Positions 128 through 33,694 of a stretch of DNA of 33,694 bases are shown piece after piece. The notes under the pieces were generated by a model, which had not been told where the DNA came from, ran no database searches, and was given only the letters and a program-made list of their open reading frames with translations. This DNA comes from Lachnospiraceae bacterium (GTDB taxonomy: Bacteria; Bacillota; Clostridia; Lachnospirales; Lachnospiraceae), in the NCBI GenBank assembly GCA_017612555.1, contig JAGAFR010000041.1:1-33694 (forward strand), written 5' to 3'. Position numbers and translations under genes: made by a program. Position 1 is the stretch's first letter; each line of letters begins with the position of its first letter.

Positions 128-1689
128 TAGAAATTGTCCGCGTAGAACTGCGAATACTTCTGAACTTCTGAATCTATGTAATCGCTTCCCAGCTTTTCGC
201 ACAACGTCTCCTGGCCCGAGAACATATCGGTTCCCAGCCCGAGCCTTCCTTCGGGTATGCTGTATCCCATGGCAGACAGGACAGTCGGGAACATATCCAT
301 TGTATTCCATGTCCTGTTCTTCATCTTAAGCGTTTGCGGATCGTATCCCGTATTGATAAAGCAGTTGTAAACCATGCGGTCCGCTGCATCAGACACAAGT
401 GCCTGATCCATCCTGGGATGATCTCCCTGTATCACGATAACCGTGTCATCATACCACTCCTGGCTTCTGCACCAGTCAACAAACTCTTTAACCTGCTTAT
501 CCGCGCATACGACCACATTGTCCAGATGTCCGGGGTATGTTTTTTCGCAAAGCGGGCATATCCATCCGTCAACATGATGTGTATCAACCGTAAGCATCGT
601 GAAGTTAAAAGGCGTGTCATTTGCCGCGATCCTTGTAAGTTCATCCTTGGCGATCTTGTAGAGCATCCAGTCCTCAAATCCCCAGTTTACTTCCTGATCG
701 GGTGTAAGATATCCGTTCTCCTCAGCCGTATACAGATCGTAAATGTTAAAATCACCGTGCTGCTCAAAGAACGCCCTTCTTCCTCCGAACCTGGCATCTG
801 ATCCGCACAGGAATTCCTGATAGTATCCCTTTTGCTTCAGTATATCTCCGAGAGTTATCGTGTTCTTAGAAAAATGCTCCTGGTTTCCGAAATCCGAATT
901 TCCCTCTATGGGAAAAGAAAAGGCCGCTCCCGTCTCGGTAGCCCACAGCGACGCCATCGTCCAGTCCGTATTCTTGGCGCTTATAAAACCTCCGAGACCA
1001 TCCTCGTCGGAAAATGAAACATTTTCATCCGCAAGTGCCGTCAGGTTCGGGATATAATTGATCTCGGGCTGCTCCCCTCCAACCTCTTTTGACGCATATG
1101 TCGTCTCCATGCTCTCCATGTAGATGTATATGAGGTTCTTCGGTCTGTCGCTCGTGATCGCCTCCACATCCGGTTTTACATAGTATTCATCATAGATCTC
1201 GGTACCGGAATTATAATCACGTATGAACGAACTTATCTCCAGTCTTTCGTTGATACTGTATATCACATAGAACGAATAACCGACCGTGACAATGAAAAGA
1301 ATGGATTTAACCAGTTTGATGGCATCGATCTTTTTTACAGATCCTTGGGTCCTGCCCAAAACGATCTCGGTCGATACGAACCTGCCGACCATAAAGAAAA
1401 CAAAAACACCGACCGCCATGATGATGATGAACGCGACAAGCTTGGGCGCTACATACTTTACGGCTCCGCCGAAAAAATCATTGTTGGCTCCCGCAAGCGG
1501 CGATTTCATCGTATAGATTATCTCGCGAAATGTGACTCCGAACGAGGCGGAAAACCACTCGAACATCCCCATAAGGGCTGTATCCGCTATAAGTCCAACC
1601 GTAAAGATCACAAAGCATATTCTGTTGAATATACGTGCTTTCCTATCCAACCGAATCTTTGTCCTTTGCTTTGATCTCACATCTGACAT
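124..1689 (-). CDS. LTA synthase/OpgB-type phosphoglycerol transferase (sulfatase fold)
   Basis: This 521-residue membrane protein has about three to four N-terminal hydrophobic helices (roughly 23-46, 82-112, 125-147) and then an extracytoplasmic sulfatase-fold domain. Visible family motifs are the metal-binding IYMESMETT segment, the nucleophile region NTDWTMASLWATETG (catalytic Thr probably in TDWT, as in OpgB GTGWT), LTVDTHH, and the metal site VIQGDHPRMD. Family members move glycerol phosphate from phosphatidylglycerol onto lipoteichoic acid or periplasmic glucans. The gene is last in an operon with a GDPD-like protein and a small membrane protein. Its start overlaps the latter by 47 bases and has no clear ribosome binding site, so translational coupling or a later start is possible. 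Substrate is inferred from the family only. Confidence 0.85.
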   Translation of the reverse strand: MSDVRSKQRTKIRLDRKARIFNRICFVIFTVGLIADTALMGMFEWFSASFGVTFREIIYTMKSPLAGANNDFFGGAVKYVAPKLVAFIIIMAVGVFVFFMVGRFVSTEIVLGRTQGSVKKIDAIKLVKSILFIVTVGYSFYVIYSINERLEISSFIRDYNSGTEIYDEYYVKPDVEAITSDRPKNLIYIYMESMETTYASKEVGGEQPEINYIPNLTALADENVSFSDEDGLGGFISAKNTDWTMASLWATETGAAFSFPIEGNSDFGNQEHFSKNTITLGDILKQKGYYQEFLCGSDARFGGRRAFFEQHGDFNIYDLYTAEENGYLTPDQEVNWGFEDWMLYKIAKDELTRIAANDTPFNFTMLTVDTHHVDGWICPLCEKTYPGHLDNVVVCADKQVKEFVDWCRSQEWYDDTVIVIQGDHPRMDQALVSDAADRMVYNCFINTGYDPQTLKMKNRTWNTMDMFPTVLSAMGYSIPEGRLGLGTDMFSGQETLCEKLGSDYIDSEVQKYSQFYADNFY

Positions 1690-1981
1690 TTATATATGTT
1701 ACAACGATCTCTTTGATGTACGGGAATATCACGGCAAACACACCTGCAACTATCGTATAGATTCCCGTGCCTGCTTCCACACTTATCCCGATCCCGAGTC
1801 TTGCGAGCACTACCCTTATGATATACGTCATGACAGCTATCCACACCGCATACTTGGCATATAATATGAGCGCATCAAGGCTAAAGCGTGCTTCCTTTCC
1901 GGAACGTCTCAGATCGATACCAAGCGCTATGACAGGTATCAGAATGTAATCGATAAACACCAGTATCCAGTCCGTATTCAT
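1643..1981 (-). CDS. small three-helix membrane protein, unknown function
   Basis: A 112-residue protein with three strongly hydrophobic stretches (about 4-20, 38-60 and 68-92) and a charged C-terminal tail (CEIKAKDKDSVG). It starts at an ATG with a strong ribosome binding site (AAAGGAG). It begins 11 bases after the GDPD-like gene and overlaps the phosphoglycerol transferase start. I do not recognise a family. Position suggests a partner or membrane scaffold for the envelope enzymes on either side, which is inference only. Confidence 0.75.
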   Translation of the reverse strand: MNTDWILVFIDYILIPVIALGIDLRRSGKEARFSLDALILYAKYAVWIAVMTYIIRVVLARLGIGISVEAGTGIYTIVAGVFAVIFPYIKEIVVTYINVRCEIKAKDKDSVG

Positions 1982-1992
1982 ACTGTTCTCCT

Positions 1993-2907
1993 TTAAAAGT
2001 ACTGTTTTTCTTTATCTACAACATCGGTATACAGGCCGGTAACTCCCATATCGATGAACTTCTCCATTTCTTTTTCTTCATTGACGGTATGTGCAAAAAG
2101 AGGTATACCGCTTCCCTTTAACACTTCAAAGCTTTCCGCATATGATGTGGGAAAATCCGTCCAGAACGTGATGCCTGAAAGCCTTGTCCTGTCTATAAAA
2201 GCCTTGAGCGAAGGCGCGGTCAGTTCCTCATCCGCAGCTCTGTACAACGTATATATTATGTTGTTGAAACCAAGAGCTTTTATGTGATCGTACTCATCTT
2301 CGTGATAGATCTGGATGATGAAATTGTTCATAAGCTCCGGATGGGATGCTTTTATCAGTCTGCACACTTCCGCGTTGTCATCCTTGACATCGGTAACGAC
2401 ATAGAAGTCAGGATGATCCTTCATGAACGCTGCCAGATCTTCAAAAGACATGGTCGACAGACAGTCATCATATTTTGCATCGATGAACACTTCAAGAGAC
2501 GGCGGGCAGTTCGGCGTCCCGGCATTCTTTACATTGTGCGCCCAGGTAACTCCGTCTTCACTGTCATGTGCACACACGATCTGATCATCTGCCGTGATCA
2601 TAAGATCGAACTCCGAGATCCTGTTTCCCTTATCATAACAATTCCTGAGAGCTTCCCTGCTGTTGGTATATGAAAACAGTTTCCCGTCGTCCTCTATATA
2701 TCCGCCCGCATGGATGATATACCTGTTATCCGTAAGGAGCTTTCGGCACTGCGACACCGTAAGGACTCCCCTTCCCGGAAAGATAATGAGCACGGCAATG
2801 ATCGCCAGAACGGCTATTATCATAACCGCCGTGACGATATACGTTACGCTGATCTTCTTTTCTTTTATATACAGATTTACATCTACGGATCTGCCCATGG
2901 AAAACAT
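1993..2907 (-). CDS. membrane-anchored glycerophosphodiester phosphodiesterase-like protein (HAGG type)
   Basis: This 304-residue protein has one N-terminal signal anchor (about 20-43) and an extracytoplasmic TIM-barrel domain of the GDPD/PI-PLC-like superfamily. Recognisable segments are IIHAGGYIEDD, YTNSREALRNCYDKG, EFDLMITADDQIVCAHD and, near the end, FAHTVNEEKEMEKFIDMGVTGLYTD. Classical GDPDs read HRG at the first catalytic histidine. Here the arginine position is alanine (HAGG), a variant I recognise from a Firmicutes GDPD-like subfamily, so activity on ordinary glycerophosphodiesters is uncertain. It is first in the operon with the phosphoglycerol transferase, which fits recycling of glycerophosphate polymers. 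ATG 2907 overlaps a TATAAT box, so ATG 2898 is a plausible start. Confidence 0.82.
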   Translation of the reverse strand: MFSMGRSVDVNLYIKEKKISVTYIVTAVMIIAVLAIIAVLIIFPGRGVLTVSQCRKLLTDNRYIIHAGGYIEDDGKLFSYTNSREALRNCYDKGNRISEFDLMITADDQIVCAHDSEDGVTWAHNVKNAGTPNCPPSLEVFIDAKYDDCLSTMSFEDLAAFMKDHPDFYVVTDVKDDNAEVCRLIKASHPELMNNFIIQIYHEDEYDHIKALGFNNIIYTLYRAADEELTAPSLKAFIDRTRLSGITFWTDFPTSYAESFEVLKGSGIPLFAHTVNEEKEMEKFIDMGVTGLYTDVVDKEKQYF

Positions 2908-2951
2908 TATACTTCTAATTCAAAAAATCTTCCACGGATTTTATTATGGTT

Positions 2952-2957
2952 TATAAT
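2952..2957 (+). promoter_or_regulatory. candidate -10 box directly before the EF-G-like gene
   Basis: TATAAT at 2952-2957 ends 6 bases before the ATG at 2964. A mirror TATAAT on the minus strand (2911-2906) ends 7 bases before the ATG at 2898 of the divergent gene. No good -35 is visible for either. If used, both mRNAs would start at or next to their start codon. Confidence 0.4.
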
Positions 2958-2963
2958 ACGGAC

Positions 2964-4892
2964 ATGGATAAAAATCATGTGACCCTCGGTATACTCGCTC
3001 ACGTAGATGCCGGCAAAACAACTTTATCGGAAAGTCTCCTGCTGAATACAAACGTCATAAGATCAGCGGGACGTGTAGACAACGGTACTTCCTTTCTTGA
3101 CCGCGATCCTCTTGAGCGGTCAAGAGGGATAACGATATACTCCAAGAACGCCCGTATCCCCATCGGCGATAACGAAGTGATCCTGATCGACACCCCGGGG
3201 CATGCGGACCTGGCTGCAGAATGTGAACGTATCCTCCCGGTGATCGATATGGCTCTTCTTCTGGTCAGCGCCCCCGACGGAGTAAGACCTTATACAAAGA
3301 CATTGTGGGATCTTCTGCGAAAAGAGCATATCCCGACCATGATCTTCGTCAACAAAACCGATCTTACCGAAAAAACACAGTCTGTAATGATCAAAGATCT
3401 GGAAAAACATTTTGGCTCAGGCATCATATCCTTTTCGGATAAAGACTTTTTCGAGAATGCTGCATCCACCGACGAAGTCCTTATGGACAAATATCTAGAC
3501 GCAGGGCTTGATGCCCGGGATATAAGGTGCGCTTTTAACAGTTGCACTATCTACCCGTTGTTTTTCGGCTCCGCATTAAGGGGCGAAGGTATCTCCGAGT
3601 TCATTTCGGCACTCGAAAACTATATTCTCCCGCCCGCATATTTGCCTCCAAAGGGCGGTGACTTTTCCGGGATCGTATATAAGATAAGTCACACCCCCGA
3701 TAATAAAAGGCTGTCATTCATGCGTGTTACCTGTGGCACATTGAAGGTAAAGGACGTACTTGGCGAGGAAAAAGTCAACGAGATACGTATATATTCAGGC
3801 GAGAAATATACCACCGCAGGAAGCGTTACCGAAGGAGACATATGTGCTCTTGTCGGTATGAAAAGTACGCATGCGGGAAGCGTTTTCGGCGACTGCTCCG
3901 GTCGTCCCCGGACCGTGTTTGCGCCGGCACTGTCATATGCGGTACGCTATCCTGCCGATGTTGATAAAACGAAAATGCTTAATATCCTTCGCGAGATCGA
4001 GGACGAGGAAACAACGCTTGCCGTCAGGTATTACGAACAGACCGGAGAGATATTTATATCCCTTATGGGCGATATACAGACAGATGTCATAAAGCATACC
4101 CTGAAAAAAAGATATGGTATCGATGTAACCTTCGATAACGGAGTTGTCTGTTATAAGGAAACGATAGATATGAAGACAGTCGGTGTGGGACATTATGAGC
4201 CGCTTAAGCACTATGCCGAAGTGCAGATCCTCATGGAACCTCTTGAGCGAGGCATGGGGATGGAATACTCATCAGATGTTTCCGAGGACGATCTTGACAA
4301 AAACTGGCAACGCCTTATTCTCACCCACATGCAGGAGCGCGATCATCCCGGTGTTCTGCTCGGCGCGCCGATAACAGACATCAGGCTGACACTTGTTGCG
4401 GGAAGATCCCATATCAAGCATACCGAAGGGGGGGATTTTCGTCAGGCCACATACCGGGCCATACGGCAGGGGCTGATGAAGCTTCGCGAAGCGGGATACG
4501 TACACATTCTCGAACCATATTACAACTATACTCTTAAGCTCCCCGAAAACTGCGTGGGACAGGCTATGACAGAGATATCGGCAATGTCAGGTGTGACCGA
4601 GATAGTCAATACTGATCCGACAGAGCTTGTCGTCACTCTTTCCGGACGTGCACCTGTTTCCGAAATGAACGACTATGCGAGCAAAGTCAGAACATACACG
4701 AAAGGACAGGGCGAACTGACTTTGTCTCTTGCGGGCTACGATCTGTGCCATGATGAAGAGGCTGTACTGGCTGCTTCAGAATACTCCCCGGAATCAGACC
4801 CAGGCAATCCGACCGGCTCGGTCTTCTGCTCACACGGCGCAGGCACGACCATCCCTTGGAACGAGGTTGACGATCATAAGCACATAAAATAG
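2964..4892 (+). CDS. TetM/EF-G-like translation factor GTPase (ribosomal protection family)
   Basis: A 642-residue (from ATG 2964) EF-G paralogue. The GTPase motifs are complete: HVDAGKTT (P-loop), RSRGITI (switch I), DTPGHADL (switch II) and NKTDL (base specificity). Domain IV and V segments follow (EYSSDVSEDDLDKNWQRLI, HTEGGDFRQATYRAIRQG, LEPYYNYTLKLPE). Ribosomal protection proteins bind the ribosome and release tetracycline using a domain IV loop, which I recall as YSPVSTP in TetM. Here the same region reads RSHIKHTEGGDFR. The protein therefore belongs to the wider family of Lachnospiraceae 'TetM-like' GTPases and need not confer resistance. I prefer ATG 2964 over ATG 2946, because the latter precedes a TATAAT box. 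No Shine-Dalgarno sequence is visible. Confidence 0.85.
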   Translation: MDKNHVTLGILAHVDAGKTTLSESLLLNTNVIRSAGRVDNGTSFLDRDPLERSRGITIYSKNARIPIGDNEVILIDTPGHADLAAECERILPVIDMALLLVSAPDGVRPYTKTLWDLLRKEHIPTMIFVNKTDLTEKTQSVMIKDLEKHFGSGIISFSDKDFFENAASTDEVLMDKYLDAGLDARDIRCAFNSCTIYPLFFGSALRGEGISEFISALENYILPPAYLPPKGGDFSGIVYKISHTPDNKRLSFMRVTCGTLKVKDVLGEEKVNEIRIYSGEKYTTAGSVTEGDICALVGMKSTHAGSVFGDCSGRPRTVFAPALSYAVRYPADVDKTKMLNILREIEDEETTLAVRYYEQTGEIFISLMGDIQTDVIKHTLKKRYGIDVTFDNGVVCYKETIDMKTVGVGHYEPLKHYAEVQILMEPLERGMGMEYSSDVSEDDLDKNWQRLILTHMQERDHPGVLLGAPITDIRLTLVAGRSHIKHTEGGDFRQATYRAIRQGLMKLREAGYVHILEPYYNYTLKLPENCVGQAMTEISAMSGVTEIVNTDPTELVVTLSGRAPVSEMNDYASKVRTYTKGQGELTLSLAGYDLCHDEEAVLAASEYSPESDPGNPTGSVFCSHGAGTTIPWNEVDDHKHIK

Positions 4893-23488: not shown

Positions 23489-25126
23489 TTACCTCGCGTC
23501 CGTAAAGCTGCCCCGACTCTTCCTCTCACGTTTATCTTCATACATTATCTTGTCTGCGCGGCGTACAACATCGATCACCTTGCGATCACTCAGGGGATTG
23601 AAGATCGCAAAACCGGTCGAGACCTGAACCTGCTGCCATTGCTCCTTTGCAAGCTGATTGGTCTTGGAACGTTCTTCGTCAAACCTTGTAAACAGGGCGT
23701 CCATATTGCTATAGTCCTCATTGGTCAGTATTACGGCAAACTCATCGCCTCCAACCCTGAAGAGCGGACTGTGCTTGAATACACGTCCGATGGTCCGGCA
23801 TGCGGTCTTCAGATATATGTCTCCCTTATCATGACCGTGCTGATCATTTATGAACTTAAGATTATCACAGTCAAAAACGCCTATCGCGAACTCAACTGAT
23901 CTGTTATCGGCTTCAACCTGCTCCTGCAGTTCTTTGACCGCGTTGGTAAATGCGCCCTTGTTCTTTGCACTTGTCAGGGCATCGACAAATACCTGTTTAT
24001 TCAGATCGTTGATCTGCTCTTTCAGGTTTTCGGACATACGCCGGAACGTACTGGTCAGTCTGCCAAGCTCATCATTTCCCGAGTATCTGAGATCATAATC
24101 ATAAATACCCCTGTCCGCCTGTTCAGCAGCCTCAGTCAGCTGTTCCAGCGGCCTGGTGATCCGCCTCATATAAAACATGAAAATGAGTCCGGCAACAACG
24201 AGAACTCCCGCTGCAACGATTATTATATTCCATATCAGACCCTTCCAGTCTCCTCTTGTTTCCGAAACAGGAACAGTGATGTTTAATCTCATCCCGTTAC
24301 TCAGAGGCAGCCATACTGCTTCCTTTTCCACTCCCTCATACTTGTAACGTATGAATGTGCTGCCTCCGGCCACACCTCCGGGAATTTCCGATTTTGTCTC
24401 TTCCGTCAGGCTCGCGACATCTATATACGGATGATAGAACAGGTTTCCTTCCGAATCGTTTATAAATGCATATCCGCTGTCATATATGCGTATACTGTCG
24501 ACCTGATCCGCCATGACGGAGTAGTCAAGTTCTATCCCGACAACACCTATGAACTGCCCCTTCCAGATGATCGGGACATCATAGGATATAACACGCATAT
24601 CAAGATTCTCCGTTATATACGGTGGCAGCCATACAGGCTTTCTCTCATACTTTGGAACAGTGAACCATATCAGCTTTGATGTGTCCTCGACATCATAAAG
24701 GGTTATGTCCGTTACCTCATGTTCCTTGAATCCCTTCCCGTCAATATCCGTATACCAGAATCCCTTTACGGTATCGGAGATCGACGGATCGATCCTGTAA
24801 TAGTATGTCAGGACACCGTTTGTCTTCGATGCAGTCTCGTCAAAGTATTTCCGGACACGATCCACATGAGAGGCCAACTCTTCTTCATCCAATCCCTGCA
24901 GGTCATCCTCAACAAAGGTTGCAACCTTCCCAACCGATTTCTGTACACTGTCAAAATAATATTCAAGATTCTTCTCGCCCGTCTCACACAGCATCAGAAG
25001 CAACTGGTCCGACTCCCTGCTCTCGGTCCTCATAATGAAAACAGCCGAACAGGCCGTGACGATCACAAGAGCCGCGAACAGAACACAAAGCACCATTATC
25101 GTGATCCTTGTCCCCAATGACCTCAT
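23489..25126 (-). CDS. membrane diguanylate cyclase (dCache-HAMP-GGDEF)
   Basis: A 545-residue protein with TM1 about 8-31, a dCache-type extracytoplasmic sensor (about 35-275; TYYYRIDPSISD and IIWKGQFIGVVGIELDYSVM are typical), TM2 about 286-310, HAMP (311-365) and GGDEF (about 375-540). The catalytic loop FRVGGDEFAVILT is intact and the I-site position reads KHSP instead of RxxD. It should synthesise c-di-GMP without strong product inhibition. The start overlaps the stop of the upstream EAL gene (ATGA), with GGGAGG as ribosome binding site, so a cyclase and a phosphodiesterase are translated as a coupled pair. Confidence 0.92.
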   Translation of the reverse strand: MRSLGTRITIMVLCVLFAALVIVTACSAVFIMRTESRESDQLLLMLCETGEKNLEYYFDSVQKSVGKVATFVEDDLQGLDEEELASHVDRVRKYFDETASKTNGVLTYYYRIDPSISDTVKGFWYTDIDGKGFKEHEVTDITLYDVEDTSKLIWFTVPKYERKPVWLPPYITENLDMRVISYDVPIIWKGQFIGVVGIELDYSVMADQVDSIRIYDSGYAFINDSEGNLFYHPYIDVASLTEETKSEIPGGVAGGSTFIRYKYEGVEKEAVWLPLSNGMRLNITVPVSETRGDWKGLIWNIIIVAAGVLVVAGLIFMFYMRRITRPLEQLTEAAEQADRGIYDYDLRYSGNDELGRLTSTFRRMSENLKEQINDLNKQVFVDALTSAKNKGAFTNAVKELQEQVEADNRSVEFAIGVFDCDNLKFINDQHGHDKGDIYLKTACRTIGRVFKHSPLFRVGGDEFAVILTNEDYSNMDALFTRFDEERSKTNQLAKEQWQQVQVSTGFAIFNPLSDRKVIDVVRRADKIMYEDKRERKSRGSFTDAR

Positions 25127-28011
25127 TGTTTTTCCTCCCGAAGGATCTTTGCCTCAAAATCACTCGGATGCAGCGGCCGCGAGAAATAATATCCCTGAAC
25201 ATATCTGCATCCCATTTCCTTCAATGCAAGTATCTGCTCTTTTGTCTCCACGCCCTCAGCGATGACAGGAATGCCCATGTTCTTTGCTATCCCGAGTATA
25301 AGTGCGACCATCTGGTTATCTTTATCGTTGTTTCCGATATTCTGTACGAACATCCTGTCCATCTTAAGTACATCGATCGGCATGGCCGAAAGCATATTAA
25401 GCGAAGAATACCCTGTGCCAAAATCATCCATCTCGATCGTGTAGCCCTTCCGGTGCAGGGCTTCAGCCACATTGATGACTTTGTCCGAATTGCCCGTATA
25501 CGCTGATTCGGTGATCTCAAGTTTTAATGTATCATGTTCCAGTCCGTTCTCGATCAGTATCTCATCAAGAGTTTCTTCAAGCTTAGGGTCAAACACATCA
25601 ACCCGCGACAGATTGACTGACACCGGGAGAGTCTTTCCAAACTCCGTTTTCCATCTGGCGATCTGCCTTGCGGTATGCGACCATACGTATTTGTCGATAT
25701 CGCCGATCTTTCCGTTCTTCTCAAACAACGGGATGAACGAATCCGGCGCCACCATTCCAAGCTTCGGATGCCTCCATCTGATGAGTGCCTCGGCTCCCAC
25801 AAGTTGCGGCGGTTCAGCCTGTATGTCGTATTTAGGCTGATAGAACACTTCAAACTCAAAACCGTCAAGTGCCCTTTGCAGATCGTTTTCCAGGAGCTGA
25901 TCGTTCAGCTCGCGCTTGCGAACCTTTTCATCAAAAACTATCAGATGCTCCACGTAATGTCCGCGAGCCATGTTACAAGCCGTCCTTGCCATGTCAAACT
26001 GCTGGATCGGTTCGAGATCTTCCTGCCAGGGCATCACGCCCATACGCAGCCGGACACTGGCTTCGGGCGCAACATTCCTGAGCCTGCGCTGCAATCGGTC
26101 AAAGATCGCCTGATAATCATCGGTACTTCTGAAGTATATGTCAAAGCGGTCAGCTCCGAATCTTCCTGCGATGCCTGCCCCCTCACTCGCAACCTGGCGG
26201 ACTTCAGCCGCAAGTGCACGGAGGATCTTATCTCCGAAATCCCATCCGTTCAATGCATTGATCGAATGGAACTGCTCAATATTCAGCACGACCGCATCTC
26301 TGGGGATATCACGACGGTCAAGGAACATCCTGTAAGCATACTGGAAAAAGTAGTCACGGTTATACAATCCTGTCAGTTCATCGATCTCGGTAGCACTGAT
26401 AAGCTTCTGAGCCTTTTTCTCCGACTTCATACTGCGGAACAGCAGGAAGAGGATCAGAACTACCACGGCACCCGTGACAGCCGTCACGGTCCCTATATTG
26501 TCATACAGGACATCGGGGAGAGAACGCCTTGCATCCTCCGTCAGATAATGTGACAATGCCGCATCAAAGGTTGATGTGGGAACAATGCCCACGATCTTTG
26601 CGAGAATGGAATATAAAGGTATCTCTCCGTTTCGCACGGCAAAACAGTAGTCGAGCGCAATACCGGTGACATACGTTGTCAGGCGGTATCTCTCGCACAT
26701 CCTTGATATGTTATTGTAACGGTAACTGCTTATCAGAACACAGTCCGCAACATTATTTGACACAGCCTTAAGGCAATCTGCCGTAGTCGGATAGTATACC
26801 GTCCTCCAGTCGGGATAATTCTCCCTCAAAAACGCATCATAATTGGGATTACCCTCGTTGACAGCAACTACAACATGTTCCCTGTTGGCAAATGTTTCCC
26901 TGTCGGACTGACGTATCACGGCAAAGATCTCCGTTCTCATGAGCGCCGGCGTCATCTCCAAATGCATCTTCTCTCCGTCATAATCGCTGAGATTAGCCGG
27001 GAACACACAATCCACTTCATCCCGGTCAAGTGCTTCAAGTGCGGCCTGAGCGGTAGGAAATGCGACCGCTTCAAAATCAATATGTGCACCCTCTATACAA
27101 TCCGACGCGTACTCAAGATAATCCTTAAGTGCGCCCCTTAATTCGCCTGTCTCAGGGTCCATGGCACAAAATGCCATATATCCGTCCTGGTATCCGACAC
27201 GTATCTTTCCGTGAGATGCCAGCCAGGAACTTTCTTCCGGTGACAGGAACGCATTGGTCCCGAAACGTTTGATATGCTTTTCAAACATTTTCAGATTAAA
27301 ATACGGGTCCTCGTCCTCAATCCTGCTCATTGCCATGTTCAGCTCACCCAGCAGATCGGGGCGGTCCTTGTTGACTGCGAAGAAGAAATCGGAAGAGCCT
27401 ATCTTGCAGAGCGGAACAAGTCTCTTGGGGTCTCCGTAGGCATTCAGCGTTATGTATGCGTCAAGCTTACCGTGCTCAAGCATATCAACTGCCGTTCCCT
27501 CGTTGCATGACAGTTCAACAAGCTCGGCATTTATATTATGTTCCTTTGCCCAACTCGAATAAAAGCCTGCCTGCAGACTTCCCTTGTTCACTCCTATTCG
27601 CTTACCGTTTAATGAGGAAAGATCATCGAACGAGATCTCTTGATTTTTCGGTGTGATAAAAATACAGTATTCTTCCGTACCCATCGGAAGATCCGTAAAC
27701 AGCATGTCCTTTGCACGCTCTTCCGTATAGGAAACGTCACTTAAAATGTCAATCTTTCCATCGACCAGCATCTGCATCAGATCGGGCCAGCTGCCGCTCA
27801 CATAAGAATAATCCCAGCCCGTATACGCGGCTATCTTCATCTGATACTCATACGCATAGCCTGAACGCCTGCCGGACTCGTCCATTGAATTGAACGGGGA
27901 TTCGTACCATCCGACACGAACATTCTTGGAAGGCTCGTCTGCACATACCGTAAGCGGCGTGAGTGCAAACACTGACATTATAGTGGCTATTAGCATTATC
28001 ACGCGTCTCAT
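25123..28011 (-). CDS. tandem SBP_bac_3 sensor - degenerate GGDEF - EAL phosphodiesterase
   Basis: A 962-residue protein: signal peptide about 1-25, two periplasmic-binding-protein modules of the amino-acid type (SBP_bac_3; about 28-255 and 268-500), one helix (about 515-535), GGDEF-like (about 550-700) and EAL (about 710-955). The GGDEF loop reads RFGADRF, so cyclase activity is unlikely and the domain may be regulatory. The EAL domain is intact: GAEALIRWRHP, KLEITES, EMDDFGTGYSSLN, LKMDRMFV, IAEGVET and QGYYFSRPL. It should degrade c-di-GMP in response to an extracellular amino-acid-like ligand. A TAAAAT box lies 7 bases before the ATG. It is co-transcribed with the cyclase at 23489-25126. 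Confidence 0.93.
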   Translation of the reverse strand: MRRVIMLIATIMSVFALTPLTVCADEPSKNVRVGWYESPFNSMDESGRRSGYAYEYQMKIAAYTGWDYSYVSGSWPDLMQMLVDGKIDILSDVSYTEERAKDMLFTDLPMGTEEYCIFITPKNQEISFDDLSSLNGKRIGVNKGSLQAGFYSSWAKEHNINAELVELSCNEGTAVDMLEHGKLDAYITLNAYGDPKRLVPLCKIGSSDFFFAVNKDRPDLLGELNMAMSRIEDEDPYFNLKMFEKHIKRFGTNAFLSPEESSWLASHGKIRVGYQDGYMAFCAMDPETGELRGALKDYLEYASDCIEGAHIDFEAVAFPTAQAALEALDRDEVDCVFPANLSDYDGEKMHLEMTPALMRTEIFAVIRQSDRETFANREHVVVAVNEGNPNYDAFLRENYPDWRTVYYPTTADCLKAVSNNVADCVLISSYRYNNISRMCERYRLTTYVTGIALDYCFAVRNGEIPLYSILAKIVGIVPTSTFDAALSHYLTEDARRSLPDVLYDNIGTVTAVTGAVVVLILFLLFRSMKSEKKAQKLISATEIDELTGLYNRDYFFQYAYRMFLDRRDIPRDAVVLNIEQFHSINALNGWDFGDKILRALAAEVRQVASEGAGIAGRFGADRFDIYFRSTDDYQAIFDRLQRRLRNVAPEASVRLRMGVMPWQEDLEPIQQFDMARTACNMARGHYVEHLIVFDEKVRKRELNDQLLENDLQRALDGFEFEVFYQPKYDIQAEPPQLVGAEALIRWRHPKLGMVAPDSFIPLFEKNGKIGDIDKYVWSHTARQIARWKTEFGKTLPVSVNLSRVDVFDPKLEETLDEILIENGLEHDTLKLEITESAYTGNSDKVINVAEALHRKGYTIEMDDFGTGYSSLNMLSAMPIDVLKMDRMFVQNIGNNDKDNQMVALILGIAKNMGIPVIAEGVETKEQILALKEMGCRYVQGYYFSRPLHPSDFEAKILREEKQ

Positions 28012-28296: not shown

Positions 28297-28324
28297 ATTA
28301 TATCACCATGTATGCTCAGGTCAA
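28297..28324 (-). promoter_or_regulatory. promoter-like sequence pointing at the attachment site
   Basis: On the minus strand TTGACC (28324-28319), a 16-base spacer and TATAAT (28302-28297) immediately follow the end of hicB. The only thing downstream before the terminator at 28238 is about 57 bases. Confidence 0.45.
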
Positions 28325-28713
28325 GCATTTATTTTATCCAACAACGCTTCCTGTAAAACTCTGGAAAAGTTAATTCCTAATTTTTCGGCTTTTTGATTGA
28401 TATAATATGGTATTGTGACATTCTTCCTTACTGATCTGGTATCGTGTTCGGCGCGATATTCTGCAAAACTGACATCCACCCAGTATTCTTCCTCTCCTTT
28501 TTTTGCCTTATAGTTCGACGATAATGGCGCAGGCGCCTCCATTCCTTCATCTTGCAGGCATATGCCGCGAAGTCCTATCGCATCTCTAGCCATAAATAAT
28601 GCCTCGGCCAAATTCTCGCCCTGCGTATGATCTCCGAAGTCCGGTATTGTTACCGCGTACCAGTTTTCCTTTGTTCGTTTTACAAAAATTGGATAGGCCA
28701 CCCTTTCTGACAC
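28321..28713 (-). CDS. hicB: HicB-family antitoxin
   Basis: A 130-residue protein with the HicB partial RNase-H-like fold at the N-terminus (YPIFVKRTKENWYAVTIPDFGDHTQGENLAEALFMARDAIGL, the hallmark substrate-mimic half) and a C-terminal ribbon-helix-helix-like DNA-binding part (KNVTIPYYINQKAEKLGINFSRVLQEAL). It should neutralise HicA and repress the operon. The start is GTG at 28713 with AAAGGAG upstream. It follows hicA with a 78-base gap, the usual toxin-first order. Confidence 0.9.
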   Translation of the reverse strand: MSERVAYPIFVKRTKENWYAVTIPDFGDHTQGENLAEALFMARDAIGLRGICLQDEGMEAPAPLSSNYKAKKGEEEYWVDVSFAEYRAEHDTRSVRKNVTIPYYINQKAEKLGINFSRVLQEALLDKINA

Positions 28714-31765: not shown

Positions 31766-32239
31766 TTATGATATTTGTATTGTTACTGTTGCCAAAGATG
31801 TACGCTGTTCAAACGATACCTTTACATCTGAATTGATGCGTTCATAGGTACATGGTACAGGCTGATTGTCGCCGTCTATCATGAACAGTGATAAGTTTCC
31901 GTTCGGTACATCGTTGAAGGTTATGGACGTATCATCGATGTACGCTGTTGCCGTTATCGTGTACGGTGTCACACTCTTGATTATCGATTCCTTCTGCGGT
32001 GTGAAGAAGTCTACGTATCGATAGTGGTTATCGATGGTGTACCAGTCGTAGCAGTTTCCTTCTTCGTCTTCCTTGGATCTGAATTTCTCAATAACCTTGA
32101 ATCTGTCGATTATCACCGAATCGTCATATTCGCGCTTGGTTTCCACAATTCCTTCAAGGTTCGAGTGTACATCTCCTTTTGTTTTTAGTGCTTCTTGCAG
32201 CACTCCTCTTCTGACTGCGCTGCCAAAAACATATTCCAT
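31766..32239 (-). CDS. phage protein next to the DGR reverse transcriptase, unknown function
   Basis: A 157-residue protein with an acidic-basic N-terminal half (MEYVFGSAVRRGVLQEALK..., DWYTIDNHYRYVDFFTP) and a beta-rich C-terminal half (TPYTITATAYIDDTSITFNDV..., SFEQRTSLATVTIQIS) that may be a small beta-sandwich. The start has an AGGGAG site and overlaps the reverse transcriptase gene by 55 bases in another frame, so the two are likely coupled. I recognise no family. A virion or baseplate/fibre role is plausible because DGR targets are usually tail-tip adhesins. Confidence 0.72.
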   Translation of the reverse strand: MEYVFGSAVRRGVLQEALKTKGDVHSNLEGIVETKREYDDSVIIDRFKVIEKFRSKEDEEGNCYDWYTIDNHYRYVDFFTPQKESIIKSVTPYTITATAYIDDTSITFNDVPNGNLSLFMIDGDNQPVPCTYERINSDVKVSFEQRTSLATVTIQIS

Positions 32240-33321
32240 GTAAGCATCTCCCTTCTTTGTTTTCTTACGATGTTTTTAAGATCGCGGACTATTCGTTCTC
32301 CCCGGAATAGATCTTTGTATATGTTCACGTTGTTACAATGCTTTAACTGTCCGAGTCTTGACAGGATGCTCTCTGCCATCCTGGGGCTTACCCTTTTTCC
32401 CTCTCTCACCCTTTTTCGGTATCTGGCTATCGCTCTTTTTGTTCGCAAGAGATTATGCTTTCTCGGGATCGTGTATCCCCTTCCGTATCTATAGCCCACT
32501 GAGTTCGGCATTCGTCCTTCGGGGCATTTAGTACTTATCACGGGATAGATCTGCCAGTCTCCTTTAAGTTCAAGATCGTGCCCTGCAAGCCATGCTTCGA
32601 TCATTGCTTTGAGCTTACGCAGCTTCCGCTTGTTTGGTCCGAATATTGTCAGGTTATCCATGTACCTGACGTAGTGGCTGCATAATCCACTCTGCCTTAT
32701 CATGACGTCGAGAGGTTGAAGGACGGTGTTTGCAAACCACTGTGACGGGTACGCTCCTATCTTTATTCCGTCTTTTGTGATCCGGTGTATAAGGTCAAGC
32801 GTCTTCCTGTCTTTGATGAGTGATCTCATCCGGTTCATTACAATATCCGGCGAAAGACTATCGTAAAAGTGCCGGATATCTCCGCAGAAACAATACCGGG
32901 TTCCTTTGATATCGCTTGTCATCCATCCTTCTATTGCTCTCTGAGCGTAGTGGGTTCCCCTTCCTCTTATGCTTCCGCAACAATATCGATCCATGCCCCT
33001 CATCAGAGTTGGCTGTATAACCTGTATCAATGCGTGGTGTACATATTGATCCGGCCATTGGATGGGTTCTGATATTGTCCGCCATTTTCTTGCGCTTGCA
33101 TCGTATCTCTCAACTATGCGCGGCGGTTTTTGTACAAAACCGTCCGTGATGATCTTTCTTAAATGTTTGATCCTTACTTCTTTGGTTCTCTCAACCCATG
33201 CGGTTGTTTTGTTCGGCTGATGTCTCGAATGCCATCGATGTGATCTATTGACCTCATCTATTGCTTTTGCAAGATTCTGATCTGATATAAGTACCTCAAA
33301 CAGATTTCCTGCTCTTTTCAA
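32185..33321 (-). CDS. DGR-type reverse transcriptase
   Basis: A 378-residue reverse transcriptase. Fingers and palm motifs are in order: RTISEPIQWPDQYVHHALIQ (about 81-100), CCGSIRGRGTHYAQRAIEGW (114-133), motif A CGDIRHFYDSL with D148, motif B IGAYPSQWFANTVLQPLD (188-205) and motif C RYMDN (219-223). The IGxxxSQ form of motif B is the mark of diversity-generating retroelements, as opposed to retrons or group II introns. Motif C has Asn at the second acidic position (YMDN instead of YMDD). No maturase, endonuclease or RNase H domain is attached. The start is a TTG at 33321, 9 bases after a perfect AGGAGG (33336-33331). The template repeat lies directly upstream. Confidence 0.95.
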   Translation of the reverse strand: MKRAGNLFEVLISDQNLAKAIDEVNRSHRWHSRHQPNKTTAWVERTKEVRIKHLRKIITDGFVQKPPRIVERYDASARKWRTISEPIQWPDQYVHHALIQVIQPTLMRGMDRYCCGSIRGRGTHYAQRAIEGWMTSDIKGTRYCFCGDIRHFYDSLSPDIVMNRMRSLIKDRKTLDLIHRITKDGIKIGAYPSQWFANTVLQPLDVMIRQSGLCSHYVRYMDNLTIFGPNKRKLRKLKAMIEAWLAGHDLELKGDWQIYPVISTKCPEGRMPNSVGYRYGRGYTIPRKHNLLRTKRAIARYRKRVREGKRVSPRMAESILSRLGQLKHCNNVNIYKDLFRGERIVRDLKNIVRKQRREMLTWNMFLAAQSEEECCKKH

Positions 33322-33460
33322 GGGATATAACCTCCTTTTAGCATTACGGACGTTCCAGCGCCCTGTTGGGTGTACTAGCCCGTTCCCTTATTCGCTCATC
33401 TTCACCATGAGGTGCGCGATATCCTGTGCTCGGATCAAGAGGTTTAGCTTACTAAAATGG

Positions 33461-33600
33461 CGACAGCCGTGGTTCGCGTTCGAGTTGGAAGTACTCGTGT
33501 AGTTCACGTAGAACAGCCCGTGATTGCCGTTCTGGTTATAATTGCCACCAACGTACAGGCACGGGTTAGACGCGTTGAAGTTCCAGTTATCGCACGAATG
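33461..33600 (-). repeat. DGR template repeat (TR)
   Basis: Read on the minus strand in the target protein's frame, this stretch encodes a C-type-lectin-like variable region: DNWNFNASNPCLYVGG, NYNQNGNHGLFYVN and TSTSNSNANHGCR. It holds 12 AAC/AAT codons within about 50, the expected excess of adenine-first, adenine-second codons in a DGR template. The right boundary (33461) is set by the end of identity with the target gene fragment at 33682-33694; the other boundary is approximate because most of the variable repeat is outside the window. The 73-residue frame at 33388-33609 is this repeat and not a separate gene. The spacer to the reverse transcriptase (33322-33460) holds a small hairpin CTCAT/ATGAG and no gene. 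Confidence 0.88.
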
Positions 33601-33633
33601 CCACAGCATTGCACAGGATACCCCGATTTATTA

Positions 33634-33653
33634 TGAGGGGGCAGTCCCCCTCA
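33634..33653. repeat. perfect hairpin/cruciform after the DGR variable repeat
   Basis: TGAGGGGG, loop CAGT, CCCCCTCA: an 8-base-pair perfect stem with a 4-base loop, 28 bases downstream of the variable repeat end. DGR targets characterised so far need a hairpin or cruciform of this size just after the variable repeat for efficient homing. It could also help terminate the target gene transcript. Confidence 0.75.
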
Positions 33654-33673
33654 AACTCCCCCTTAAGGGAGTT
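33654..33673. repeat. second hairpin spanning the target stop codon
   Basis: AACTCCC, 6-base loop CCTTAA, GGGAGTT: a 7-base-pair perfect stem that abuts the hairpin at 33634-33653 without a gap and includes the target gene stop codon in its loop. Confidence 0.6.
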
Positions 33674-33694
33674 CTAGGAGACGACAGCCGAGGC
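33663..33694 (-). CDS. 3' end of the DGR target gene with the end of its variable repeat (VR)
   Basis: On the minus strand the last codons before the edge read (x)GC-LGCRLLELP-stop, with the stop codon TAA at 33665-33663. Aligned to the template (..N-H-G-C-R), 13 bases (33694-33682) match except at the two template adenines: AAC reads xGC and CAC reads CTC. Both changes are A-to-N and all 11 non-adenine bases are identical, the signature of a diversified VR. The remainder of the target, expected to be a tail-fibre or surface adhesin with a C-type-lectin fold, is outside the window. Short overlap limits certainty. Confidence 0.75.
   Translation of the reverse strand, partial: LGCRLLELP

What the first reader, a model, noticed from the sequence alone, without database searches (positions are those of the whole stretch)
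32185..33694. A complete-looking diversity-generating retroelement at the prophage edge
Reverse transcriptase with IGxxxSQ motif, an Asn-codon-rich template repeat directly upstream, and the end of a target gene with the variable repeat, in the order target-TR-RT on one strand. DGRs (established in Bordetella phage BPP-1) mutate a receptor-binding protein at template adenines. This prophage probably diversifies its tail tip. An avd accessory gene is not seen between TR and RT and would have to lie to the right.
Basis: partly seen in the sequence, partly recalled or inferred. Interest (0 to 1): 0.92.

Follow-up and report, generated by a model that had tools for sequence, protein, structure and literature searches.

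The report
Retroelement with altered polymerase active site
A gut-bacterial prophage carries a mutation-making retroelement that probably rewrites the tip of its tail fibre, and its enzyme belongs to a lineage in which one of the textbook catalytic aspartates of reverse transcriptases is replaced by asparagine.

Summary
The finding is real but cut off. On the minus strand of 33694-32185 lie, in order: the last nine codons of a target gene with the final 13 nt of its variable repeat (VR), a GC-rich hairpin, a 139-nt adenine-rich template repeat (TR), an Rfam RT-18 RNA and a reverse transcriptase (RT). The contig ends inside the VR. Relatives are decisive: over 32 non-redundant clade loci (46 in all) 500 of 1106 template adenines differ between TR and VR, but only 13 of 3312 other bases. 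Five of five scanned targets match a tail-protein family. No Avd was recognised in 26 of 26 clade records offered.

In a tree of 96 RTs, 46 rows have xxDN and form one group (100/100); 48 have xxDD, two are gapped. A 2012 survey called both aspartates 100% conserved. VRs of this lineage have few A-to-C changes (31/500 against 127/622 in controls; second A of AAC 2/154 against 23/99). So this is a DGR of an apparently undescribed lineage with an altered active site. That the Asn causes the changed spectrum is plausible, unproven.

The parts
33663..33692 (-). 3' end of the target gene: last nine codons LGCRLLELP and stop; the rest lies beyond the contig end
   Evidence: translation; the seven aligned relatives' targets end GCRL[LQ][EV]LP
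33682..33694 (-). last 13 nt of the variable repeat (VR)
   Evidence: 11 of 13 identical to TR 33473-33461, both mismatches at TR adenines
33634..33653 (-). inverted repeat behind the VR: 8-bp stem, 4-nt loop (TGAGGGGG-ACTG-CCCCCTCA), 28 nt from the VR end
   Evidence: such a stem (7 bp or more) in 40 of 46 clade loci against 1.4 expected from mononucleotide shuffles
33461..33599 (-). template repeat (TR), 139 nt, 36 A, 10 AAC
   Evidence: ends by comparison with relatives
33332..33414 (-). RT-18 RNA (RF03021), read here as the spacer part of the DGR template RNA
   Evidence: 77.6 bits against a gathering score of 41.3, E 1.3e-13; 14 of 14 clade sources scanned have it in this place
32185..33321 (-). 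reverse transcriptase gene, TTG start behind AGGAGG, 378 aa, IGAYPSQ motif
32653..32655 (-). codon of Asn223, second residue of the usual catalytic pair (YMDN instead of YxDD)
   Evidence: N in 46 of 46 clade rows, D in 48 of 48 readable outgroup rows
31766..32239 (-). 157-aa ORF overlapping the RT end; fibre-linked phage gene, probably not part of the retroelement

Best explanation
This is a diversity-generating retroelement of a prophage, cut by the contig end inside its VR; the host is probably a member of the Clostridia (nearest named relatives are Lachnospiraceae bacteria of the rumen). Proposed working: TR and RT-18 spacer are transcribed together; the RT copies the TR into cDNA and misincorporates at about half of the template adenines; the cDNA replaces the VR at the 3' end of the tail-fibre gene, guided by the shared 3' end of TR and VR and the hairpin behind the VR; the TR stays unchanged, so the fibre tip can be rewritten again and again to bind new host surfaces. 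It works without a recognisable Avd. Its RT belongs to one lineage in which the second catalytic aspartate is asparagine and which nevertheless diversifies its targets, with few A-to-C changes. Shown by sequence: anatomy, adenine specificity in relatives, the motif and its single origin, the spectrum, conservation of RNA and hairpin. Inferred from established DGR biology: cDNA synthesis and retrohoming, receptor binding, activity of this very copy. Open: whether the Asn causes the spectrum.
For: Adenine-specific TR/VR pairs in 46 clade loci (32 non-redundant): 500 of 1106 A changed, 13 of 3312 other bases. VR remnant in the window. RT with SQ motif, grouping with annotated DGR RTs including BPP-1's. 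RT-18 between TR and RT. Hairpin. Tail-protein targets in 5 of 5 scanned relatives, E 5.6e-37 to 2.3e-49. xxDN in 46 of 46 clade rows, one change on the tree; also in loci fetched without the motif: 21 of 24 genome loci, 2 unreadable, 1 xxDD, and 27 of 27 readable RTs fetched by the neighbouring gene (many on contigs already held).
Against: The window holds only 13 nt of the VR and no body of the target, so its own diversification is not seen. The hairpin loop ACTG is not the GRNA found in other phage DGRs. A changed catalytic motif would by itself suggest a weak or dead enzyme. Fold of RT and target not tested; the search of solved structures with the target gave only antibody light chains (best E 0.0032), read as chance.
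Confidence: 0.9

Rival explanations
1. A dying DGR: YMDN marks a dead RT, and the VR differences are left over from an active ancestor.
For: The second aspartate of YxDD is 100% conserved in a survey of 155 DGR RTs (PMC3521204); changing both aspartates is the standard inactivation of BPP-1's RT (SMAA; passages).
Against: The Asn is fixed through a diverse group (clade members down to 43% identity to the window), with open RT frames in nearly all; non-adenine differences between TR and VR are 0.4% (13 of 3312) while 45% of adenines differ, which dead copies would not keep apart; D148 and D222 are invariant in the 28-row alignment.
Confidence: 0.05
2. The A-to-C shortage comes from selection on the fibre, or from other changes on the same branch, not from Asn223.
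For: Asn arose once, so the correlation is a single event; 36 alignment columns separate the clade from the outgroup by the cut-offs used; C is the rarest change in DGRs generally (PMC3521204, section 11); VRs are seen after selection; TRs are also longer in the clade.
Against: The shortage holds at one position of one codon (second A of AAC 2/154 against 23/99) and across clade members with different fibres; xxDD DGRs in hosts of the same genus lack it (5/15, 3/15, 5/20), one of them in the same assembly as a clade member with 1/17 (that assembly is a MAG with 6% contamination, and the RT of L043 is split over two frames).
Confidence: 0.55
3. Not a DGR but another RT (retron, group II, DRT-type) next to a chance Asn-rich frame.
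For: General RT, DRT and group II models match.
Against: NCBIfam scores lie far below the cut-offs (51.3 against 300 for group II); SQ motif; adenine-specific TR/VR pairs in relatives; best match among solved structures is the RT of 8ub7 (that this is the BPP-1 enzyme is recalled).
Confidence: 0.01
4. The ORF behind the RT replaces Avd as a dedicated DGR accessory factor.
For: It overlaps the RT end in much of the clade (27 of 46 rows by a strict regex that missed at least L008; 0 of 48 outgroup rows).
Against: In 3 of 33 viral loci it stands directly behind a long ORF whose C-terminus resembles the fibre (by eye) with no RT on the stretch held.
Confidence: 0.1

Closest known systems
Bordetella phage BPP-1 DGR (mtd, avd, TR, brt; AY029185)
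   Different: avd lies between mtd and TR; RT motif YMDD; other spacer RNA family; GAAA loop; more A-to-C in NAC context in E. coli (PMC12875486, passages).
Lactobacillus phage LBR48 RT (GU967410)
   Same: RT 35% identical, RT-18 RNA before the RT, small ORF overlapping the RT end.
   Different: Motif NIDD, not xxDN; no TR/VR pair found on the stretch held.
Butyrivibrio phage Arawn and Faecalibacterium phage FP_Epona DGRs
   Same: TR/VR pairs with only adenine differences, fibre-type target before the RT, no bAvd match.
   Different: YMDD; TR 111 and 106 nt; Epona has RT-4 RNA, Arawn no Rfam match.
L008, L009, L039/L153, L134 (rumen phages and Lachnospiraceae genomes)
   Same: 71-74% RT identity (for L008 and L009, for the others), YMDN, same cassette with VR present.
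   Different: Other phages; other VR contents; targets only partly held in several.

Membership tests
Diversity-generating retroelement | RT of the DGR group with (I/V/L)GxxxSQ | tested here: met
   IGAYPSQ; groups with annotated DGR RTs in the tree
Diversity-generating retroelement | TR and VR differing at template adenines | tested here: met
   In relatives 500/1106 A and 13/3312 other bases; in the window only 13 nt of VR, 2 mismatches, both at A
Diversity-generating retroelement | target gene with the VR at its 3' end | tested here: met
   Relatives; in the window only the last nine codons
Diversity-generating retroelement | RT motif YxDD (described as 100% conserved, not used to define DGRs) | tested here: not met
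   YMDN; 46 of 46 clade rows xxDN; survey statement in PMC3521204
Diversity-generating retroelement | accessory protein Avd (frequent, 62% in complete genomes by PMC8934634 passages, not universal) | tested here: not met
   0 of 26 clade records offered and 0 in the host assembly, BPP-1 control found; but the model also misses the gene annotated as Avd in PV107408, and PF05635 rang nowhere
Diversity-generating retroelement | hairpin behind the VR: 7-10 bp GC-rich stem, 4-nt GRNA loop, 4-34 bp away (PMC3240598) | tested here: inconclusive
   stem 8 bp, loop 4 nt, distance 28 nt fit; loop ACTG does not
Diversity-generating retroelement | C-type lectin fold of the target | not testable with these tools
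   structure prediction switched off; solved-structure search by sequence gave only antibody chains, best E 0.0032
Diversity-generating retroelement | RT-dependent transfer from TR to VR | not testable with these tools
   needs reads or experiment
Rfam RT-18 RNA | covariance-model score above the gathering score | tested here: met
   77.6 against 41.3 bits

The most novel reading that the evidence does not exclude
A deep lineage of DGR reverse transcriptases evolved a two-aspartate catalytic centre (xxDN), is fully active, needs no Avd, and this active site changes which wrong base is inserted opposite adenine (G hardly ever), so that the amino acids open to the phage's fibre tip are set by a catalytic substitution.
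Probability: 0.35. Interest if true: 0.8.

Novelty: new variant of a known kind. Interest (0 to 1): 0.6.

Why it matters
RTs are taught to need three catalytic carboxylates (recalled). A natural, fixed exchange of one of them in enzymes whose errors can be read directly from genomes (TR against VR) is a ready-made experiment on how an RT active site sets the type of error, with D and N lineages even in one host assembly. It also places Rfam's RT-18 RNA as the spacer of a DGR template RNA and defines a lineage in which no Avd is recognisable. DGR searches that demand YxDD would miss this lineage.

Tried and rejected
Avd to the right of the TR: not supported (VR-TR distances 88-225 nt in 46 loci). 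Avd replaced by the 157-aa ORF: considered, less likely, not excluded. TR copy or target body elsewhere in the assembly: none found. PF05635 search: nothing rang, uninformative. Structure of RT and target: not obtained. Solved-structure search with the target: antibody light chains only.

Rows dropped before the spectrum counts; no pair found in 3 clade loci (L027, L036, L037) and 21 xxDD loci; L083 and L091 had no readable motif C; L119 had none and 7 non-adenine differences. L121, L122 and L133 gave no RT frame. Of the genome loci: L136, L137, L150 no pair; L149, L155 chance pairs only; L157 four non-adenine differences; L154 no RT frame. The window is not in the counts. L021 was first paired with a wrong repeat; the pair was put in its place. 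The 46 clade loci include near-copies (for example L039 and L153); counts use 32 after removing TRs 90% or more alike. Column numbers printed are 18 higher than in the protein (241 there is N223). L087 and L088 are gapped at motif C in the tree alignment; a regex read RYMDD in them. L156 shows RNGDN by regex but QMDN in sequence and aligned column. An extended spacer alignment held badly framed rows (L017, L021, L024) and was not used.

Literature: no held paper has YMDN or YxDN together with 'reverse transcriptase'; papers with both YMDN and 'diversity-generating' would have been listed first and the five listed have none. Only open-licence main texts were searched. Two papers, recalled as the 2018 DGR survey (10.1093/nar/gkx1150) and the 2017 structured-RNA survey (10.1093/nar/gkx699), are not held; supplements were not readable. 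'Apparently undescribed' is therefore provisional. A search for D186N was seen as a listing only and is not used.

Full report
What is in the window. The window is one whole contig (C31 of a 94-contig assembly, 89.7% complete, 5.5% contaminated). Reading the minus strand from the contig end, the first 13 nt (33694-33682) match the 3' end of a repeat 221 nt further on, with two differences, both at adenines of that second copy. They lie in the end of an open frame, LGCRLLELP and stop (33692-33663), the C-terminus seen in relatives. Behind it are an inverted repeat with an 8-bp stem and a 4-nt loop (33653-33634), the 139-nt TR (33599-33461; 36 A, 10 AAC), an RNA matching Rfam RT-18 with 77.6 bits (33414-33332) and, after AGGAGG, the RT gene with a TTG start (33321-32185). 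Downstream follow a 157-aa ORF, small ORFs, a holin (PF09682) and an endolysin (GH25).

Relatives show that it is a DGR. Searches with the RT gave 30 viral loci, 106 phage records at E 1e-5 or better, matches in 5 of 99 related genomes, the own one included, the own genome alone of 392 of the order at E 1e-60, and 24 genome loci. In relatives with enough upstream DNA the VR lies upstream of the TR at the end of a long ORF. Over 32 non-redundant clade loci (46 in all, near-copies included) 500 of 1106 TR adenines differ in the VR but only 13 of 3312 other bases. All 5 scanned targets match PHROG 5302 'tail protein' (E 5.6e-37 to 2.3e-49), and the one neighbour each scanned for that purpose in L011 and L020 matches a baseplate wedge family. 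The target is therefore read as a tail fibre or tip protein. That it binds receptors is inferred from DGR biology.

The cassette. VR and TR are 88-225 nt apart in the 46 clade loci, while BPP-1's avd takes 387 bases. Two limits: many records are fragments, and the model also misses the gene annotated as Avd in a Bacteroides phage, which resembles DUF4376 instead. A divergent Avd elsewhere is not excluded. RT-18 was found in 14 of 14 clade sources scanned; of six xxDD sources, LBR48 has RT-18, Epona and L094 have RT-4, BPP-1 has Phage_DGR, and L046 and L057 have none. Where found, the RNA sits just before the RT, so RT-18 is best read as the spacer part of the DGR template RNA. In an 18-row alignment 7 of 23 predicted pairs have a change on both sides. 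A stem of 7 bp or more behind the VR is present in 40 of 46 clade loci (1.4 expected from mononucleotide shuffles) and in 22 of 66 xxDD loci (1.9 expected). The window's stem length, loop size and distance fit the description for phage DGRs; its loop sequence does not (PMC3240598, passages).

The unexpected part: the active site. Motif C of the window's RT is YMDN. Of 96 RTs left after clustering at 88% identity, 46 have xxDN (YMDN 42; YVDN, NMDN, YIDN, QMDN once each), 48 have xxDD and two are gapped there. The tree needs one change of the label, support 100/100, in all 200 bootstrap trees. The xxDD row nearest to the clade is L041 (YIDD), on a long branch whose place is unsure. D148 of motif A and D222, the first Asp of motif C, are invariant in the 28-row alignment A2. 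The pattern does not come from searching with the motif: the genome scan used two patterns elsewhere in the protein and gave 21 xxDN, 2 unreadable and 1 xxDD (33% identity) of 24; fetching by the neighbouring gene gave RYMDN in 27 of 27 readable RTs, many on contigs already held. [quoted passage not shown] I found no mention of the variant in the papers that could be searched.

A changed error spectrum. Among changed adenines the clade has G 298, T 171, C 31 (6%); the xxDD controls have G 324, T 171, C 127 (20%). Per locus the medians of the C fraction are 0.059 (n = 31) and 0.211 (n = 39), Mann-Whitney p = 1.6e-8. Loci of one clade are not independent and the Asn arose once, so this p-value overstates. 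The difference holds inside one context: at the second A of AAC, C makes up 2 of 154 changes in the clade and 23 of 99 in controls. BPP-1 in E. coli shows raised G misincorporation just in the NAC context, the opposite (PMC12875486, passages). xxDD DGRs in hosts of the same genus have 5/15, 3/15 and 5/20 A-to-C changes, and one assembly holds both kinds (L039 1/17, L043 5/20), which speaks against host effects alone; that assembly is a MAG with 6% contamination and the RT of L043 is split over two frames. Early-branching clade members share the shortage (L151 1/15, L032 1/15, L028 2/22, L147 0/11) and L041 does not (4/13). Against a strong claim: C is the rarest change in DGRs generally, and that survey argued against a strong enzymatic bias (PMC3521204, section 11); selection and the other residues that changed on the same branch (36 columns by the cut-offs used, N223 among them) remain open. 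TRs are also longer in the clade, median 139 against 110.5 nt.

The gene behind the RT. The 157-aa ORF overlaps the RT end. Its N-terminal domain was found in 33 viral loci; 30 have RT sequence before it, 3 have a long fibre-like ORF directly before it and no RT on the stretch held. I read it as a fibre-linked phage gene beside which the TR-RT cassette was inserted, or from which it was lost, rather than as an Avd substitute.

Verdict. By its defining features (SQ-type RT, adenine-specific TR/VR pairs, target 3' end) this is a DGR. It is a new variant by its catalytic motif; the absence of a recognisable Avd is shared with the Arawn and Epona phages. The mechanism is mutagenic retrohoming, inferred from the known systems. 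That Asn223 alters the type of error is a testable hypothesis, which I put at about one in three.

Noticed in passing
L162 around 871-2718, L184 around 1319-3169, L185 around 1049-3231: The small gene that follows the RT in this lineage stands directly behind a long ORF with a fibre-like C-terminus (by eye), with no RT on the stretch held: possible sites without, or after loss of, the DGR cassette.
   Followed up: partly
L045 702-777: Lactobacillus phage LBR48 has an RT-18 RNA before an RT with NIDD in motif C, so RT-18 is not confined to the xxDN lineage.
   Followed up: partly
L156 5001-6173: The most diverged full-length clade member (43% identity) has QMDN in motif C and IGAFFSA instead of the SQ motif, yet 15 adenine and 0 other differences between TR and VR.
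   Followed up: partly
L028 9424-9746 and L029 4059-4159: The 3' part of a tmRNA gene lies at the contig end beside the phage DNA; the phage may integrate there.
   Followed up: no
L044 2238-2638: Only 4 of 26 TR adenines differ from the VR, the lowest share seen in the clade.
   Followed up: no
window 23489-28011: Two adjacent large minus-strand ORFs (545 and 962 aa) that look by eye like membrane sensors with GGDEF- and EAL-type motifs (recalled motifs, not scanned), host side of the prophage.
   Followed up: no
window 28321-28713: HicB-like antitoxin ORF (PF15919, E 2e-9) next to the prophage lysis end.
   Followed up: no
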